Part shown: positions 35,460-43,643 of the stretch, in pieces | Position numbering within the stretch: position 1 is the stretch's first letter | Layout of the letters: the number at the start of each line of letters is the position of its first letter | Source of the DNA: an uncultured Prevotellaceae bacterium | Lineage (GTDB): Bacteria; Bacteroidota; Bacteroidia; Bacteroidales; Bacteroidaceae | Reading direction: 5' to 3' | NCBI GenBank assembly: GCA_949299545.1 | Contig: CASGAM010000029.1 | Span: 1-64,000 of the forward strand | DNA length: 64,000 nt | Program-made: the position numbers and the translations under genes | Notes under the pieces: generated by a model | The model's input: only the letters and a program-made list of their open reading frames with translations | Databases searched by the model: none | Told to the model about the DNA's origin: nothing

Positions 35460-35924
35460 CTATTTGTTCCACTCCTCAAGAAATTTTTGTTTATTGAATG
35501 TCGGGCTTGTAGAGTCATTGGTAGAAAGTGTCTTGCATAACGAATCAAAGACTTCCGATTTACTAAGCGTTAGGGTTATAAAAACCGTGTAGCCGTTTTT
35601 TATTTTCACTACGGAATCAGTAGTTATTTCTGCCCCTTCAATGGCAGTTTTGGCTGTTGCTACGGTTTCGCTGATAAACTCGTCTGAAGACAATCCTGTA
35701 AGGGTTTGATGGGAAATATAGCTTTTAGTCGTATTTTCAACTTTGCCATTAACCATTGTTGCCAAAAGGTTCTTTGCATGCAGTAAGGCTTTTTGGCGTG
35801 CAAGCATGGCCGATTTTGCCGAAGCGCTTTGTGTAGCTTCAAAGACTTTGCTTTCTTTATCTGCATAGATATGGACTGAGAGCGTTGACAAGCAAAAAAC
35901 GAAGAATAGAGTTTTTAATTTCAT
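35460..35924 (-). CDS. Exported LPP20-like small protein, last gene of the caspase operon
   Basis: A 154-residue protein with a signal peptide (to about Ala21). The mature part has an alpha-helical stretch (SAKSAMLARQKALLHAKNLL) then strands (KIKNGYTVFITLTLSK), the helix-then-strand pattern of LPP20/FlgT N-terminal-like domains. No enzymatic motif is visible. It overlaps the upstream gene by 4 bases and shares with the next two proteins an exported, A/K-rich helical character. I do not know its function. Confidence 0.65.
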   Translation of the reverse strand: MKLKTLFFVFCLSTLSVHIYADKESKVFEATQSASAKSAMLARQKALLHAKNLLATMVNGKVENTTKSYISHQTLTGLSSDEFISETVATAKTAIEGAEITTDSVVKIKNGYTVFITLTLSKSEVFDSLCKTLSTNDSTSPTFNKQKFLEEWNK

Positions 35925-36955
35925 TGTTTTGTCTCTTCTGTAGTATTGTCAATAATCAAATCAACCACACTGACTTGTAGGTCGGGTTTCCGTATTTTGT
36001 TTTCGGAAAGCCAACGGGCAAAACGGGCAGAGGATATGGACGGTAGTTGAGAATAGCCATCGGGAAGGTCGTTTCCCGTATCTGCCGTCATGCTGAAGAA
36101 AAAGTCTTTTGTGAAAGCGGATTCAGAGAAAAGATAATAAATCCTGATAACATCGTAATCTCGGTCTGTAATCAGTTCCAGTTCGTCTACTGTTTCCCGT
36201 TCAGAAGGTAATGCGGCAGCATAATCGAAGAAAGTGTACCACCTGTTGGCTTCAATCGTTACATCATCGTCGGTGTCAAACGCAGAGTAGGGCAGCATAC
36301 GGAAAGCATTCTCCCCGTTATCCATAAAAAGTACCAAATGGCCGGACTGGGAGCAACGGAAACGGGTGACAAATAAGTCGCCTTGCCGGAAAACCGAGTT
36401 CTTACCACCCTTGATAACAGCCTTTCCGTCCTGTATTGTCTGTTCTGCAATATTTTGTTTTTGCCCATTTTGAATTTGGAACTCAAATTGAGGCAGGACT
36501 TGTTTTATCGGTTGGGCATAACCTTTCACCGTACACGACCATCGCATGGCGTCAACCTTCTTTTTCAGTTTTCCGAAAATATTGTTTTTAAGAATTTCTG
36601 TTTCCTCGGAAGTGAAGCGGGGAGTAGCGATGTCGGCTCTCCATATACCTTGTGGAAACTGAGATGTCAGGTCAAGGTAATGTTCATAACTGTCTGCTTC
36701 ACCTTCATACGTTTTCATGAAATTACCATAAGTTATCGACGTTCCGAATTTTTTCTCTACAGCTTCCTGTCGTGCGATGTTAAGAAGTTCCTCTTTGTTG
36801 AAGGTTTCGGATTCCGGGACGGTAACAACAGTCGTACCTTCCACCTGCACCCACTCAGCAGGCGGCTCACCCTGAAAAAGCTGAGCCGACGCTGAGAATG
36901 TGTGCAATGTGAAAACTATGAGTATGCGTAACTTATTCTTCAGATAATCCTTCAT
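35921..36955 (-). CDS. Exported protein with FlgT-N/LPP20-like and DUF4384-like parts
   Basis: A 344-residue protein from the ATG at 36955, which gives a clean signal peptide (to Ala24, SASAQ); a longer frame adds nine residues. The N-terminal half has NKEELLNIARQEAVEKKFGT, typical of FlgT-N-like repeats. The C-terminal half (RQGDLFVTRFRCSQSGHLVL, then FDTDDDVTIEANRWYTF) resembles DUF4384, a domain often found with caspase-like and secreted kinase proteins. This suggests a partner of the operon's caspase. It overlaps its upstream neighbour by 23 bases. Confidence 0.6.
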   Translation of the reverse strand: MKDYLKNKLRILIVFTLHTFSASAQLFQGEPPAEWVQVEGTTVVTVPESETFNKEELLNIARQEAVEKKFGTSITYGNFMKTYEGEADSYEHYLDLTSQFPQGIWRADIATPRFTSEETEILKNNIFGKLKKKVDAMRWSCTVKGYAQPIKQVLPQFEFQIQNGQKQNIAEQTIQDGKAVIKGGKNSVFRQGDLFVTRFRCSQSGHLVLFMDNGENAFRMLPYSAFDTDDDVTIEANRWYTFFDYAAALPSERETVDELELITDRDYDVIRIYYLFSESAFTKDFFFSMTADTGNDLPDGYSQLPSISSARFARWLSENKIRKPDLQVSVVDLIIDNTTEETKQ

Positions 36956-37571
36956 TGACGAACTCACTGATTTTTGTTGCATATTTTTGGGCTGCCTGAG
37001 ATTCTTTCATGGCATTTTCGTAAGCTCTGATACGTGCTTTGGATGCTGCGCTTTCGCTGGCAATGAAATAGCTTTGCATTTCGTAAGTGCCGTCACCGTT
37101 GTCTCTGATGACTGTGAAACTCGGTTCGAGTTCACCTTTGATTTCTTTTTCCACTTCACGTTCATAGGCTGCATAAAAATGTTCAAATTCTCCTTCTGCG
37201 TCCGTTCCGTCACCCGAGATGTCCGAAGCGACTCGTCCCTTTACGTGGCTGCCTGCCCTTTGGGCATAAGTTACAATCGCATTGTTGTAAGCCATTTGTA
37301 CGCCGACGTTTTTAGATTTGAATTTGGAAGCTATGCCTACAATTTCAACTGCATCATCGCCTAACTCGGACAGTTTGTCGAAATGTTTCAGCAAAACGAC
37401 ATCTTCGCTGCGTGATGTCCCGTAAATCTTCCAGTTGCCTTTCTTAAATTCTTTTTTCTTTGCCTTGAATTCTTTTTTCAATGCTTTTTCCAATGCCTTG
37501 TTCTGAGCCTGCACCTCAGCTACTGGCGCCATCAATAACAGCGCGAATAGAAATGTTAATAGTTTTTTCAT
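36933..37571 (-). CDS. Exported lysine-rich LPP20-like protein
   Basis: A 212-residue protein with a signal peptide (to Ala22, EVQAQ), then a strongly basic helix (about 26-47, KKEFKAKKKEFKKG). After this comes KIYGTSRSEDVVLLKHFDKL and a helical and strand-rich region (GVQMAYNNAIVTYAQRAGSH), similar to LPP20-family outer-membrane proteins. No catalytic motif is evident. It begins 8 bases after the FISUMP gene and overlaps the next gene, so it is fully embedded in the operon. Confidence 0.6.
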   Translation of the reverse strand: MKKLLTFLFALLLMAPVAEVQAQNKALEKALKKEFKAKKKEFKKGNWKIYGTSRSEDVVLLKHFDKLSELGDDAVEIVGIASKFKSKNVGVQMAYNNAIVTYAQRAGSHVKGRVASDISGDGTDAEGEFEHFYAAYEREVEKEIKGELEPSFTVIRDNGDGTYEMQSYFIASESAASKARIRAYENAMKESQAAQKYATKISEFVNEGLSEE

Positions 37572-37579
37572 TGTTATTA

Positions 37580-39571
37580 TTATTTATCTTTAACTGGACG
37601 TATACACCCACTTGTGCCTACAGCTATTCCAGATATTGAATGTTCTTCAGACGTTAGTTCGATTGCTTTCATATAATAACTTACAATTTTGTAATATTGA
37701 CCGCATAAATAGAAAGTTGAAGAATTGTTAGAATTTAATGGTAAAAAAATACTATTCCCATTTTCTCCTATAACTTGCCAGCCATCTATGTTTTTATATG
37801 TCTTTTTTATCCAAATGCATTTGCTTCGTAATTCTTCTATTTCTTCTTGATCTGGTGTACGCCATGTGGTTCCTAACATTTTTACAGTAGGGTCATATAT
37901 TGTTCCACTGATATAGTTTCCCGTGCTACTTCGAAGTATAGAGTATGATTCTCCTATATCTTCTGGAGTATTGGAACTAAGATTATAACTTCTCCATAAG
38001 ACACTTAAACCTAAATCGACGGCCTCTTCCGTTGAAATGTCGACTTCTAATGATGTCGTAAATTTACCAGTATTACTATAATATGCAATACTATCTTCTC
38101 TTTGAACGTATATACAATAATAATAAGTTGTACCTACTTTTAAATTTGATAAATTAGCTGTAATTGCATCGCCGTTATAAATGCCAGATATAAAGTTACC
38201 TTCTTCTATATTAGGATATTCTTTTGTTCCATACCATATCCCAATTTTTTGTACATTTGAAGAACATTTTATGAGTCCTGATACAGATGCTGTGGTTGCA
38301 GTTATGTCTGTTGCGGAGTTGACTTCGCCATAAATATTGTTGTCATACACTGGTCGTATAGACATTTGGTATTCTTTCAGATCATCATTTGTACAATAAT
38401 AATCTTGTGATAGTTCAAAATGACACACGTAGTCAGTAGCAACAAAATCTTGTGTACCGATTCTGTAGAATCCCCTATCGCCAACGAATCCTATACCGTT
38501 ATTTATACCTCCAGCAGGCAGAAATATGCTATTATTATTTGGTCCTGTTATTTTATATCCCATGGTATTTTTATATTTAATCCATTCCCATGTACATTCA
38601 GTTCTTAATTTTTCCCATTCTTCTTTGGTTGGAATACGATAATTAGTACCTAATTGATACCAAGCTGCATCATATCCACTTCCACTGATGTTTTTAATGG
38701 TTGGGTAGTCATTTCTGTTCATTGAAGATATTCCGATCGGATCGCCCCAACCGTAATATCTTCCATATTCCTCGGGTGAGTCTGCTCCTAAATTACAACT
38801 TCTCCAAAGAACGCCTATTCCTAAATCTATATTTTCCCCCTCAGAGATCTCAATTTCTTTGGTTTGAAATGACAAATTATTTCCATAAATTCTTTTACCA
38901 TTGATTTCTATGCATGCACAGTAATAATATGTGCTTCCTGGTTCTAAGTCAGTGATCTCAGAAAAGAAAGATTGTCCATCAATGGAAGTGTATTGTATAA
39001 TATCAATATTATTGTATTGCAGGTCGTTTTCAGATTTACTCAGTAAAAAGCCAATTTCAGTCGTTTCTGGTGCTAAATCATCAATTGTTATATTGTCTGA
39101 TAAGCTACCCATAAGAGTTACCGATGTCTGTGTAATGTTATTTGCAACACTAGTTTCTAGTTCATAATTATCTAATGGAACTGTAAATTGATAAGATTTT
39201 GATATAGTACAAGTAGAATCGTTATTAGCCCAAATTAGTACTTCAATTTTGTATTGAGATCCTTTGTAAAGATTTTCAAATACAGCTTTATAAGTATTTC
39301 CTTTTACTAATGTAGGGGATATTCTTTTTTGGATAAGCCAACTATTATATTTATTGACTGTAAGATCAAAACGAATTGAATCAATGGGATCTCCTGTTAT
39401 ATCAAAACTAACGTCAAATTCAACAGTTCTGTCATGAAAGGCGGGGTCGGTAAATGTTAAATTGTTTATATATGTTTCCCCGTTGCTCCAATCATATGGC
39501 TCTTGCATGCAACTGTAGTTAGAAAATATTATTAGCAAGACAATAAGTATATATTGTATCTTTTTTCTCAT
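37580..39571 (-). CDS. Surface lipoprotein with two FISUMP domains
   Basis: A 663-residue lipoprotein (lipobox NYSC, Cys21). Two fibronectin-III-like segments alternate with two FISUMP (Fibrobacter succinogenes major paralogous) domains, seen in GVLWRSCNLGADSPEEYGRY and again in VLWRSYNLSSNTPEDIGESY. FISUMP proteins are surface or adhesive in nature. The gene is visibly more AT-rich than its neighbours, pointing to recent acquisition or replacement within the operon. The second FISUMP domain looks shorter than the first. It lies 11 bases after the beta-barrel gene. Confidence 0.75.
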   Translation of the reverse strand: MRKKIQYILIVLLIIFSNYSCMQEPYDWSNGETYINNLTFTDPAFHDRTVEFDVSFDITGDPIDSIRFDLTVNKYNSWLIQKRISPTLVKGNTYKAVFENLYKGSQYKIEVLIWANNDSTCTISKSYQFTVPLDNYELETSVANNITQTSVTLMGSLSDNITIDDLAPETTEIGFLLSKSENDLQYNNIDIIQYTSIDGQSFFSEITDLEPGSTYYYCACIEINGKRIYGNNLSFQTKEIEISEGENIDLGIGVLWRSCNLGADSPEEYGRYYGWGDPIGISSMNRNDYPTIKNISGSGYDAAWYQLGTNYRIPTKEEWEKLRTECTWEWIKYKNTMGYKITGPNNNSIFLPAGGINNGIGFVGDRGFYRIGTQDFVATDYVCHFELSQDYYCTNDDLKEYQMSIRPVYDNNIYGEVNSATDITATTASVSGLIKCSSNVQKIGIWYGTKEYPNIEEGNFISGIYNGDAITANLSNLKVGTTYYYCIYVQREDSIAYYSNTGKFTTSLEVDISTEEAVDLGLSVLWRSYNLSSNTPEDIGESYSILRSSTGNYISGTIYDPTVKMLGTTWRTPDQEEIEELRSKCIWIKKTYKNIDGWQVIGENGNSIFLPLNSNNSSTFYLCGQYYKIVSYYMKAIELTSEEHSISGIAVGTSGCIRPVKDK

Positions 39572-39582
39572 ATTGTTTTATA

Positions 39583-40281
39583 TTATTTTATTGTTAACTT
39601 AGAATTCTTTTTAAGATATCGGTTTCCATTCAGCATGAATCCTATGGATACGGAGAGTGTATTCATTTTGTTGCCTAAGTTGCCTTTGTAAAAGGTATTG
39701 GCAAAACCTATGTTTTTGATGCCAATTCGGTAGAAGCCATATTCCAATCCGAAACCATAGTCATATCCAAACAAATAATTATTATTACCGACATCGGTGT
39801 TATCATATCCACTTAAGAAATTAATGAATGAACCATTTATAAATATGCGGATATTGTTATCTAAGAGGAACTTAATTTCAACGCCGATTGGGACGTTTAG
39901 TCCTCTGTATGCCATATAACCTTGATGGATATCCAAATAAGAGTATGGATAATCATAGTCATAGTCGCGAGTAGGGAAAAATTCTCCGTAATCTACAGCA
40001 TTCAGTTGCATAAAGCCGGCTCCCCAACGTATGGAGGTTGCCATCCAGTTGGGGGTCCATGTTCTTGGGAGAATATGTTCCAAAACTATGTTTGCAGAGT
40101 ATATTTGTGGGTTGTCACTTAACATTTTTTGCTGGAATACACCTCTGCTGTCGTATTCATATCGCATACCGAATCCTATGTTTCCTTCTATGCCTATTCT
40201 GGGCTTTACTTGCGCATGTGCCGTGTCGGGCATCAGCATTATCAGATAGAGGAGTGCAAATATTTTTATTAATCGTTTCAT
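39583..40281 (-). CDS. Outer-membrane beta-barrel protein
   Basis: A 232-residue protein with a signal peptide (to Ala23, TAHAQ). The mature part alternates aromatic and hydrophobic residues in strands (IGIEGNIGFGMRYEYDSRGV, GYDYGFGLEYGFYRIGIKNI) and ends with SVSIGFMLNGNRYLKKN, fitting a small eight-to-ten-stranded outer-membrane barrel. It could anchor or carry the other exported products of the operon. It starts 18 bases after the caspase gene ends. Confidence 0.7.
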   Translation of the reverse strand: MKRLIKIFALLYLIMLMPDTAHAQVKPRIGIEGNIGFGMRYEYDSRGVFQQKMLSDNPQIYSANIVLEHILPRTWTPNWMATSIRWGAGFMQLNAVDYGEFFPTRDYDYDYPYSYLDIHQGYMAYRGLNVPIGVEIKFLLDNNIRIFINGSFINFLSGYDNTDVGNNNYLFGYDYGFGLEYGFYRIGIKNIGFANTFYKGNLGNKMNTLSVSIGFMLNGNRYLKKNSKLTIK

Positions 40282-40299
40282 GTTTCTGTTTTATGATTG

Positions 40300-42624
40300 T
40301 TATTTACTATATTCGACAAAAGACTCGTTTATACGTCCGCTGACTTGTATGACAGGATCTTGATTGACCTGTTCGCCTTCAAGTTCTTTTACTAAGTATG
40401 GGATGCCGTGAGTGTTTTTATCGCTGATGTATTGATAGAGTTCGTCAAAGGTCAGGATGCCGTCCGCATTGAGGTCACTCTTTGCATGGTCTTGCATGGC
40501 CTTGAAGAGAGTGTATGAGAAGAGTCCGTGCTTCTTGTCATTATACCAGTTTGCATATTGGTCTTCTCCTGCTGCTGAAAGTATCACGAATTTGGCTAAT
40601 TTGTCCGGTTTCGGCCGGCGTACGAATTCTGTTGCCGAGGCTTCCATTGAGATGGCCTGTCCGGAGAAGCAGGCGTCTGTCATGATATTGATGCGGTCTA
40701 CAGGCAGTGCCCCCAACATTTTGTAGATGTCTTGCAGGGATGTGGCTTGTTCCTTGCAACTTTTGGGATTAGAACGGACACCCAGCAAATAAGGTTCGCC
40801 CATGAACGGGTAGCCGTGTCCGGAATAGAAGAAATATACTTCTTTTGCACCGGTCCGACTGATGAGTTCCTCTAATTTGTGTTCGCCATCATTAAATCCG
40901 AAAATATTGTCGAAATCGCTTTTGTCTGCATTGGTCTTGAAGATGATGTTACCGGCCGGAATACCGATGGTCTTTATCAGATAATCACGCATGGTTGTGG
41001 CGTCGTTTACAGCATAGTTGACAGGGCCTACTTTTGTAGTTCCCTGTTTGCCGGTTGCCACTTTATAGTCCGTATTACCTATGATAACGGCCACGGCATT
41101 GGCTTTTTGGTCTGTTTCAGGGATGTTGGTGTCGACTTCTGCCGTTCTTTCATATACATTTTCCTTTTGAGAGGCTATTTCAGGATATTTCTGCTGGAAT
41201 GCGTTGTGAATGGTTACTTCCACGGCCACCCGTCGATATTCCGGACCCACTTCATCGGCTACTTCTGCGAAATGTTCGTAGTGCACATTGGCTACGCGGA
41301 ATGCTCCGATATAGCGTTCCATGAAGTCGCGAATGTCAAGTGTACGCAGATATGCCAACTGTTCGTTGCTGTTGATGCCGCTTTCACGTGTTACCGTGAT
41401 ATAATCAAATGCTCCATTGACGAAACATTCCGCTTCGTTTATTTCGCCGAAAGCGCCGTCGTAAGGTACGGTGTTCTTGAATGGCGAAGCGTCTGTACCG
41501 CCAATGATTTTTACCGTCACTTCTGTTCCCGGGAGTATGTATTCTTCTATTTTGGATTCGATGGTGCTTTTGATGATACCTGCCGTTTGCAGGGCTGCCT
41601 GTGAATCCTTGAGCCGGTATTTTCCTGAAGCCCAGTCTTCGGTTGCATTGTCTATATTGAGCTTTTTAAGTTGTTCGTTCAATACTTGGACGTCGTAGCG
41701 TATTTTCATGTTATATTCAGTCTCACCACCGGACTTTATTTCAGGCATGACCTCTGCATTGACATCAACTTTGGTGTTTTCTGTCAATTTTTTGTTGGCC
41801 TTCAACTCCGCAAGCAGGTTTAGAAGGAGTTCTTTCAGATCGCCTTTTATTTCATTGGTTATGTCCTCAGCCTGTTTGACGGCTTTCACGACCTCTTCTT
41901 CTTGTTGATTCTTTTTTACTTCCTCTTTTTCTTCCGGTTCCGGCTTGGGCATTTTGTACCATACAGGATTATAGGGAACAAGGGCTAATTCCTGCATTTT
42001 TGATTCTGTACGTCCTGTGAGATTAAAACGATGCAGGTCTTCTCCGACTTGAATATATAAGCTGGCGTTAGTATTTTTGGTGATTTCTTTCCTGATAGGG
42101 ATGTTAATCTCGCCTGTAATGTTCTTGTTAATGTTAAGTGTGAGCTGTTCAGAAGGCAGAGGCTTGTACTTTTTATCTTCAATTATGATGTAAATGTTGC
42201 TTTGGGCTGCAAAAGTGGCGGTTGTTCCTTTTTGAAGACGCAAGTCTACCTTAAACCGCATCATTCCGCTGTTGGAACGTTTCTTAAAATCGGATATGGC
42301 ACAATAACTGTTGGGCATGACGGAAATCAGTTCCGCACCTTTAAGATTGGTATATTTATGAGGGTTGTCCGGATTTTCTATATCGTATGGAACGTCCCGG
42401 TTGGTAACAACATCGCGCCATCCTATATTTGACAGTGTCGAATCGATGGCAGGATTGATTTTTGATTTCTTTATCTTATAGATGCCGTTAGGCGTCTGGT
42501 TTAACAGCATGTATCCATAATTTGTAGCGACATAGTTTTGTGCTGAAAGTCCTGTGGAGATCAAAGACAGACTACATACCAAGGACAATGTGGAACTGAG
42601 TTTTATAAAATTATTTCTCAACAT
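40300..42624 (-). CDS. Secreted caspase-like (C14) protease with OmpA-like segment and EF-hand
   Basis: From the ATG at 42624 (774 residues; a longer frame adds 13) there is a signal peptide to SAQ near residue 29, then a beta-rich N-terminal region. A charged coiled linker (KPEPEEKEEVKKNQQEEEVV) follows. An OmpA-like segment is suggested by NEQLAYLRTLDIRDFMERYI and GPEYRRVAVEVTI. The C14 domain has His603 in YSGHG and Cys652 in TDACFSG. After it, DLNADGILTFDE is a canonical calcium-binding EF-hand loop. It probably cleaves after basic residues as metacaspases do; the targets are unknown. It heads a six-gene operon. Confidence 0.88.
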   Translation of the reverse strand: MLRNNFIKLSSTLSLVCSLSLISTGLSAQNYVATNYGYMLLNQTPNGIYKIKKSKINPAIDSTLSNIGWRDVVTNRDVPYDIENPDNPHKYTNLKGAELISVMPNSYCAISDFKKRSNSGMMRFKVDLRLQKGTTATFAAQSNIYIIIEDKKYKPLPSEQLTLNINKNITGEINIPIRKEITKNTNASLYIQVGEDLHRFNLTGRTESKMQELALVPYNPVWYKMPKPEPEEKEEVKKNQQEEEVVKAVKQAEDITNEIKGDLKELLLNLLAELKANKKLTENTKVDVNAEVMPEIKSGGETEYNMKIRYDVQVLNEQLKKLNIDNATEDWASGKYRLKDSQAALQTAGIIKSTIESKIEEYILPGTEVTVKIIGGTDASPFKNTVPYDGAFGEINEAECFVNGAFDYITVTRESGINSNEQLAYLRTLDIRDFMERYIGAFRVANVHYEHFAEVADEVGPEYRRVAVEVTIHNAFQQKYPEIASQKENVYERTAEVDTNIPETDQKANAVAVIIGNTDYKVATGKQGTTKVGPVNYAVNDATTMRDYLIKTIGIPAGNIIFKTNADKSDFDNIFGFNDGEHKLEELISRTGAKEVYFFYSGHGYPFMGEPYLLGVRSNPKSCKEQATSLQDIYKMLGALPVDRINIMTDACFSGQAISMEASATEFVRRPKPDKLAKFVILSAAGEDQYANWYNDKKHGLFSYTLFKAMQDHAKSDLNADGILTFDELYQYISDKNTHGIPYLVKELEGEQVNQDPVIQVSGRINESFVEYSK

Positions 42625-42796
42625 TTTTTGTAATGGGATAATCATATAGTTAATAACTGACAAGTGTTTTCTTGCAAGGGAATCCGACTGGATTAGAAAC
42701 GAAAAGTTTATTCTGACAATTTTTCAGTTAGATGTGCATGCGTTATAGTCTTTATGCCTATTGATCTCCCAGCGTCAGCGGTGATTTATTGATGTA

Positions 42797-43253
42797 ACTA
42801 CACAAAAAAAGCGTGGAGATCTGACCATGTTACCCGTCCCACGCTTCGAGGCTCTCGCATTGCCCAGTATAGTAGAACGAGCAACGCAGAACCCACGCCG
42901 ATAATTATATACAATACACCCTATAACTATTAATGCACGCTCGTCCGGTAAAGATACAGGAAATACGTGATAACAGAAATAGGGATGTTTATATATTAAA
43001 CATCCCATGAGCATCTACAGTTGCTTTATTCCTGACTATACTTTTTGAATTTGCGAGATTCGAAGCGTCAAGGATATGCGCACGATAAACGCTTTCTTAT
43101 ATATAGTGGTTCTTCTTTGTTCCCTCCACAGCAGCCGCTGACATACTTGTCTTTTTTCAAGATATTTTCTGTTTGCGTCGGCGTGGGTTCTTAACTTGTT
43201 AAGTAAGTCGGACACTTCCGAAAAACTTAGATAGCGTAAGATTTTTTAAGAAC
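42797..43253 (-). ncRNA. Putative structured RNA or leader upstream of the caspase operon
   Basis: On the minus strand a consensus promoter (43260-43290) and a terminator (42809-42846) bound about 450 gene-free bases. A perfect 14-bp inverted repeat, AGAACCCACGCCGA (42888-42901) and TCGGCGTGGGTTCT (43178-43191), could close a roughly 300-base domain. Inside is a 10-bp hairpin (42982-43006). The 6-base core GCGTGG occurs twice before the terminator arm CCACGC, allowing alternative pairings. No known RNA family was recognised; tmRNA and RNase P signatures are absent. Confidence 0.5.
42809..42846 (-). terminator. Intrinsic terminator upstream of the caspase gene
   Basis: On the minus strand AAGCGTGG pairs with CCACGCTT (8 bp), followed by a run of T. 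It lies about 185 bases before the caspase start, so it either ends a separate RNA or attenuates transcription into the operon. Confidence 0.75.
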
Positions 43254-43259
43254 CAAAAG

Positions 43260-43290
43260 CAAAGTTATTGTATTTTTTAGAACAAACAAA
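43260..43290 (-). promoter_or_regulatory. Promoter for the putative RNA/leader
   Basis: On the minus strand TTTG (43290-43287), a 19-base spacer and TAACTTTG (43267-43260) match the Bacteroidota consensus. No comparable promoter was found between the terminator and the caspase start. Confidence 0.65.
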
Positions 43291-43570: not shown

Positions 43571-43643
43571 GCGGTTGCAGCAAAATTTGCGACCTGTCGC
43601 TTCTACAAGGCGACAGGTCGTGTTGTCAGAAACGACAGGTCGC
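43571..43643. repeat. GCGAC-family palindromic intergenic repeat, site 3
   Basis: GCGACCTGTCGC (43589-43600) pairs with GCGACAGGTCG (43610-43620) around a 9-base loop. A further ACGACAGGTCGC follows at 43632-43643. The flanking AAGCGGTTGCAGC (from 43570) resembles the extra module at site 1. The copy lies just beyond the 3' end of the MATE gene. Confidence 0.8.

What the first reader, a model, noticed from the sequence alone, without database searches (positions are those of the whole stretch)
35460..42624. Six-gene operon built around a secreted caspase-like protease with OmpA-like and EF-hand parts
Seen: six consecutive minus-strand genes spaced 18, 11 and 8 bases, then overlapping by 23 and 4. 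The first encodes a C14 domain with an intact His603/Cys652 dyad, a signal peptide, an OmpA-like segment and a canonical EF-hand loop. Every other product has an export signal: a beta barrel, a FISUMP lipoprotein, an LPP20-like protein, a FlgT-N/DUF4384-like protein and a small LPP20-like protein. Known: C14 caspase domains and DUF4384 co-occur in bacterial systems of unclear role. Inference: this is an envelope-located, possibly calcium-responsive proteolytic module in which the caspase processes its operon partners or a surface substrate. I know of no description of this gene set.
Basis: partly seen in the sequence, partly recalled or inferred. Interest (0 to 1): 0.8.

Follow-up and report, generated by a model that had tools for sequence, protein, structure and literature searches.

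The report
Envelope caspase operon with leader RNA
A Bacteroidales genome carries an operon for a caspase-type protease that is predicted to be anchored in the cell envelope; partner genes of the same kinds sit beside such proteases in many related genomes, and the operon is preceded by a conserved RNA structure, matched by no Rfam family, that likely controls whether it is transcribed.

The parts
43287..43290 (-). TTTG, candidate -33 box, 19 nt before the -7 box
   Evidence: sequence; 21 of 48 leader copies have TTG-N17-23-TAnnTTTG within 300 nt upstream, shuffles mean 1.3, max 4 of 300
43260..43267 (-). TAACTTTG, Bacteroidetes-type -7 box (consensus recalled)
   Evidence: TAnnTTTG within 300 nt upstream in 47 of 48 copies, shuffles mean 7.7, max 15 (L112 left out, too little upstream sequence)
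42795..43121 (-). leader RNA element (nhmmer core 42805-43096)
   Evidence: 49 copies in fetched sequence; covariation; 421-nt stretch folds with z -6.1; no Rfam match
43052..43058 (-). TCTCGCA, 5' side of the kissing loop
   Evidence: helix 3: 98.7% of cells paired, 5 of 7 pairs with both-side changes
42853..42859 (-). TGCGAGA, 3' side of the kissing loop
42802..42903 (-). 3' domain with terminator-like outer stem and T run (model R1)
   Evidence: R1 match 103.2 bits; structure from A6
40300..42624 (-). secreted caspase, 774 aa: beta domain ~56-222, helix 233-276, OmpA-like module ~284-472, caspase 505-774
41209..41775 (-). OmpA/MotB-like module with Asp378 and Arg427
   Evidence: fold; Asp378 in 26 of 26 and Arg427 in 24 of 25 rows with a letter
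40816..40818 (-). catalytic His603 codon
   Evidence: 55 of 55 His
40669..40671 (-). catalytic Cys652 codon
   Evidence: 55 of 55 Cys
40441..40476 (-). EF-hand loop D717-E728, lineage-specific
   Evidence: insertion in 9 of 55
39583..40281 (-). small predicted outer-membrane barrel, 232 aa
   Evidence: relatives in the same place in L062 and L063; no significant Pfam match
37580..39571 (-). fn3/FISUMP-like, probably surface lipoprotein, 663 aa
36933..37571 (-). LPP20-like exported protein, 212 aa
   Evidence: 80% identical relative in L063, 64% in L070; LPP20 assignment inconclusive
35921..36982 (-). FlgT_N/DUF4384-like exported protein, 353 aa
   Evidence: family A1; model pLDDT 82
35460..35924 (-). 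small LPP20-like exported protein, 154 aa
   Evidence: relatives in L062 and L063

Best explanation
This operon encodes a caspase-type cysteine protease that is predicted to be exported and tethered to peptidoglycan by an OmpA-like module, together with FlgT/DUF4384-like, LPP20-like, barrel and FISUMP-like partners, and its transcription is likely gated by a structured leader RNA. Steps shown here by sequence: the gene order and intact dyad; the recurrent linkage of caspase with the FlgT/DUF4384-like gene; the leader with its own -7 box, kissing loop and terminator-like hairpin ahead of this and other operons. Steps inferred: RNA polymerase starts at the -7 box and by default tends to stop at the 3' hairpin, whose apical loop kisses the upstream hairpin; a trans-acting factor (a NusG paralogue is my favourite, as four leader copies sit directly in front of one) or a ligand lets it read through; the FlgT/DUF4384 and LPP20-like proteins form an outer-membrane/periplasmic scaffold that holds and restrains the caspase against the cell wall; when released, the caspase cuts exported proteins, perhaps the FISUMP-like lipoprotein, probably after Arg/Lys as recalled for orthocaspases.
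Against: 24 of 33 FlgT-caspase loci show no strong leader, some for lack of upstream sequence. In the order sample only 26 of 52 genomes with a FlgT match above the weakest had it within 10 kb of a scored caspase match. No transcript, activity, localisation or binding data. The FlgT fold had no PDB match at E<=0.001. The 3' hairpin may end a free small RNA rather than gate the operon. Window proteins alone do not reach Pfam cut-offs for OmpA, LPP20 or DUF4384.
Confidence: 0.5

Rival explanations
1. The leader is an independent small RNA, made from its own promoter and ended by the 3' hairpin; the operon downstream has another promoter, and position beside operons reflects a shared neighbourhood only.
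For: Each copy ends in a GC stem with a T run before the gene; a separate terminated transcript is consistent with that. A 10-of-12 sigma-70-like site lies at 42904-42933, inside the leader, though that consensus does not suit Bacteroidetes.
Against: 45 of 49 copies have a same-strand ORF starting within 260 nt; 33 of these 45 first ORFs look export-signalled against 34 of 86 later ORFs by a home-made rule.
Confidence: 0.25
2. The module is a death or anti-phage device: damage to the envelope releases the caspase, which kills the cell.
For: Bacterial caspases occur in defence systems (recalled); PADLOC's generic caspase model matches (E 3e-5, and 3.3e-13 for a relative).
Against: No partner matches a PADLOC model; products look exported, away from cytoplasmic targets; leader regulon holds T9SS-sorted, LRR, S8-protease and barrel proteins rather than defence genes.
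Confidence: 0.12
3. The caspase releases or matures surface proteins, as periplasmic transglutaminase-like LapG does for an adhesin (recalled), with the transglutaminase-like partner as a second protease.
For: Transglutaminase-like relatives with Cys/His/Asp conserved recur in the operons; FISUMP-like and other lipoproteins are frequent neighbours.
Against: No substrate or cleavage site identified; no LapG or LapA homologue tested; Pfam transglutaminase matches are weak (6 of 15 at E>=0.014; DUF553 in 2 of 15, best 2.5e-4). Partly compatible with the best explanation.
Confidence: 0.3
4. The leader is a dispersed repeat or mobile element without regulatory role.
For: Up to 10 copies per genome in the genus by DNA match, up to 17 by R1; a partial match in one phage record.
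Against: Within-genome copies are mostly 56-75% identical; pairs covary; fixed orientation to a downstream gene and a -7 box upstream of 47 of 48.
Confidence: 0.06

Closest known systems
Prokaryotic metacaspases/orthocaspases (peptidase family C14, PF00656)
   Same: PF00656 over cut-off, His-Cys dyad, metacaspase-like fold; OmpA in 14 metacaspase operons already reported (PMC3501461, section 13 read)
   Different: Exported, OmpA-like module inside the same protein, EF-hand insertion, fixed FlgT/DUF4384 and LPP20-like partners, leader RNA
DUF4384-bearing cyanobacterial orthocaspases
   Same: DUF4384 associated with a caspase domain (PMC7475262, passages)
   Different: There in one protein; here a separate exported FlgT_N/DUF4384-like protein
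UpxY/NusG-paralogue antitermination in Bacteroides capsule operons
   Same: A 5' leader with a termination step ahead of an operon; a NusG paralogue gene directly behind some leader copies (PMC7819879, passages)
   Different: Here one leader family heads many unlinked operons; factor and read-through not shown
Bacteroidales-1, Bacteroides-1 and other structured RNAs of Weinberg et al. 2010
   Same: Structured RNAs of Bacteroidales (PMC2864571, passages)
   Different: No Rfam 15 model matches this leader
Flagellar FlgT/FlgP-type outer-membrane ring proteins (recalled)
   Same: FlgT_N found in 3 of 23 and LPP20 in 1 of 15 partner proteins, weakly
   Different: No flagellar gene was seen beside them; ring formation untested

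Membership tests
Peptidase family C14 (caspase-like) | PF00656 above its cut-off | tested here: met
   49.2 bits against 21.4
Peptidase family C14 (caspase-like) | His-Cys catalytic dyad | tested here: met
   55 of 55 aligned caspases
Peptidase family C14 (caspase-like) | caspase fold | tested here: met
Peptidase family C14 (caspase-like) | proteolytic activity | not testable with these tools
   needs protein
OmpA-like peptidoglycan-binding domain | PF00691 match | tested here: inconclusive
   none at E<=1 for the window protein; E 0.032 for one relative
OmpA-like peptidoglycan-binding domain | OmpA/MotB fold | tested here: inconclusive
   2zvz_A (MotB) E 5.1e-3, prob 0.99; 6u83 (FopA1) E 5.1e-3, prob 0.92
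OmpA-like peptidoglycan-binding domain | Asp and Arg that bind diaminopimelate (recalled from OmpA) | tested here: met
   Asp378 26 of 26, Arg427 24 of 25 rows with a letter; 42 rows in all, the rest gapped there
EF-hand calcium protease | canonical loop conserved in the system | tested here: not met
   loop in the window protein, insertion in 9 of 55 caspases
DUF4384/FlgT_N proteins | Pfam match in the family | tested here: met
   DUF4384 20 of 23, FlgT_N 3 of 23; window member alone none
LPP20 proteins | PF02169 match | tested here: inconclusive
   1 of 15 at E 0.011
Known anti-phage caspase systems | system partners in PADLOC | tested here: not met
   only the generic caspase model matched; no match for the other window proteins or a transglutaminase-like relative
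Known RNA families (Rfam 15) | match to any model | tested here: not met
   none for the leader over gathering scores; best 18.0 bits, E 0.5, gathering 50
NusG-paralogue antitermination leader (UpxY-like) | NusG paralogue gene behind the leader | tested here: inconclusive
   4 of 49 copies (L149, L157, L159 by Pfam, L141 by phmmer); not at the caspase operon
NusG-paralogue antitermination leader (UpxY-like) | read-through depends on the factor | not testable with these tools
   needs strains

The most novel reading that the evidence does not exclude
A previously undescribed class of kissing-loop terminator leader RNA, spread through Bacteroidales, governs a surface/envelope regulon through a NusG-type antiterminator; one of its targets is a peptidoglycan-tethered caspase machine with a FlgT/LPP20 scaffold and a partner transglutaminase-like protease, that is, a regulated extracytoplasmic caspase pathway in gut bacteria.
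Probability: 0.3. Interest if true: 0.9.

Novelty: new variant of a known kind. Interest (0 to 1): 0.72.

Why it matters
Bacterial caspases are mostly discussed as cytoplasmic death or defence enzymes; a conserved exported module with fixed partners makes an envelope role testable. The leader gives a second, independent handle: a structured RNA with strong covariation that ties the caspase operon to other surface-protein operons and points to a shared signal or antiterminator in an order that dominates the gut.

Tried and rejected

Rows dropped: A1 holds 23 of the 24 cluster members (L098 left out); A2 15 of 19; A4 31 of the 49 proteins besides the window and two loci; A5 44 of 49 leader copies (L153, L164, L159, L167, L171 left out: the first four rows were close to others or held N by eye, the fifth for brevity); A6 39 of those 44. 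In one search the five weakest FlgT genomes (G026, G039, G070, G163, G174) were left out of the linkage count. At most three caspase candidates per genome were scored, so linkage there is a lower bound.
Full report
1. Observation. The caspase matches PF00656 at 49.2 bits (cut-off 21.4) and nothing else in Pfam at E<=1. It is the only PF00656 match in the window's own assembly, which is 79% complete. The window genome is placed in the same family (f1) as G384, whose contig has the same length and the same match as a record titled uncultured Bacteroidaceae bacterium, so a Bacteroidaceae host is likely.

2. Is the set real beyond this genome? A protein search returned 49 proteins, 48 of them long relatives at 44% identity or more (only 7,998 candidates were scored). 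Two relatives keep the core order: L062 (G384) caspase-barrel-FlgT-FISUMP-LPP20-like, and L063 (G548) caspase-barrel-FlgT-LPP20-like-lipoprotein-LPP20-like-Sel1 protein-transglutaminase-like. L064 (G197, another family) has caspase-FlgT. In 18 fetched loci the OmpA-like module sits in its own gene (WD40 propeller or barrel N-terminus) next to a TPR-caspase gene. The fusion in the window and the neighbouring genes elsewhere point to the same functional pair.

3. Statistics. Family sample, 301 genomes: caspase-query match in 54, FlgT-like in 46, both in 45; 42 of 45 within 10 kb, median gap 1.7 kb, 15 genera (Fisher p 2.6e-43, not corrected for relatedness; the match may lie in the OmpA module or the caspase). 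The nine genomes with a caspase match only are mostly weak short matches. Order sample, 295 genomes: 80, 57, both in 54; 26 of 52 genomes linked within 10 kb. LPP20-like and transglutaminase-like profiles match 78 and 95 of 301 genomes, so these two also occur without the caspase; in the window's own genome the transglutaminase-like protein is on another contig, in a 1,298-aa predicted lipoprotein (L102). In the window's genus only 2 of 18 genomes have a caspase match, so the operon is patchy.

5. Leader RNA. Upstream of the operon, a 421-nt stretch folds at -137 kcal/mol, z -6.1, none of 100 shuffles as good. nhmmer finds 49 copies in the fetched sequence; note that L132-L171 were fetched because they match the window's leader, so only their context, not their number, is informative. 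Alignment A5 (44 copies) gives 37 pairs, 17 with both-side changes. By eye the loops of the two hairpins are complementary; with this kissing helix 97.4% of cells pair, 22 of 44 pairs change on both sides, 91 such cells against 24.1 in shuffles, and slid versions pair at 41.6-47.6%. The kissing helix itself pairs in 98.7% of cells, with five of seven pairs changed on both sides, including TCTCGCA/TGCGAGA, CTTCGCA/TGCGAAG and CCTGAGA/TCTCAGG. I chose these columns on the same alignment, so an independent set would be a fairer test. The outer stem of the 3' hairpin is followed by a T run, like an intrinsic terminator. 47 of 48 copies have TAnnTTTG within 300 nt upstream (shuffled mean 7.7, maximum 15). 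No Rfam family matches.

6. Where the leader sits. In 60 sources surveyed with model R1 (the window and loci fetched for caspase or transglutaminase-like matches before the leader was noticed), there are 9 strong hits, all upstream of FlgT-caspase operons (window, L062, L063, L067, L071, L098, L105, L111, L112), two weak ones also upstream (L073, L077) and one weak one elsewhere (L099). L105's lies 750 nt from the first ORF of the run; L111's overlaps the listed ORF start; L063's is 184 nt from the caspase ATG behind a doubtful 80-aa ORF. That is 9 of 33 loci with FlgT in the caspase run and 0 of 20 without (some loci lack upstream sequence). With 6.3 copies per genome (126 in 20) and an assumed 1,500 transcription units, about 0.13 of the other 32 would be expected; 8 are seen. 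R1 was built partly from these loci, but they had been found by nhmmer with a model that started from the window copy alone. In two genomes of other families, G021 and G025, R1 hits lie about 0.74 kb upstream of the FlgT gene on the same strand, with a caspase behind. In the order sample 37 of 149 genomes have R1.

7. Other leader operons. First downstream genes include FG-GAP/PKD giants, DUF4595 lipoproteins, an LRR protein with a T9SS tail, a FadL-like barrel, an S8 protease with a sorting tail, a PEGA protein heading the FISUMP/LPP20/transglutaminase-like operon of G378, CXXX-repeat peptides with a radical SAM maturase, a LytTR protein, and NusG paralogues (26 proteins scanned in all from 21 of the 40 leader loci L132-L171). 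45 of 49 copies have a same-strand ORF within 260 nt; 33 of the 45 look export-signalled by a home-made rule, against 34 of 86 later ORFs. In the window's genome the only other copy found (G000:C23) is in front of a NusG paralogue. UpxY proteins prevent premature termination in 5' leaders of Bacteroides fragilis capsule operons (PMC7819879, passages), the closest working model.

8. Known or new? OmpA in 14 metacaspase operons and surface functions in 16 are in print (PMC3501461, section 13 read). My searches (for the caspase system; 96, 98-100, 108 for the leader) found no description of this gene set or leader; the library lacks most subscription papers, and supplements could not be read. I file the system as a new variant of a known kind; the leader may deserve more once tested.

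Noticed in passing
window 43589-43643: Three near-copies, alternately inverted, of a GCGACAGGTCGC-type sequence between the caspase leader and the convergent gene upstream (inverted repeats I2, I5).
   Followed up: no
L102:5332-9228 (G000:C17): The window genome's own transglutaminase-like protein is a 1,298-aa predicted lipoprotein with a CarboxypepD_reg-type N-terminus by my home-made profile, preceded by a 211-aa lipoprotein-like and a 289-aa exported-looking gene.
   Followed up: partly
L136, L137, L138 (leader loci): The leader also heads small peptides with an RREFFKKAAK Tat-like start; in L137 these match a CXXX-repeat radical SAM target family (E 1.3e-10) with its maturase (E 1.8e-186).
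   Followed up: partly
L152:2187-4511: A tubulin-like protein (PF13809, E 1.2e-19) is the second ORF behind a leader copy.
   Followed up: no
L068:2378-4975 and similar TPR-caspases: Split-type caspases carry, just before the caspase domain, a stretch that matches the OmpA-module profile outside the OmpA part; the OmpA-module protein and its caspase neighbour seem to share a further domain.
   Followed up: no
phage record MT839469.1:1482-1576: A 95-base, 78.8% identical piece of the leader in an unannotated 4.3-kb faecal phage record.
   Followed up: no
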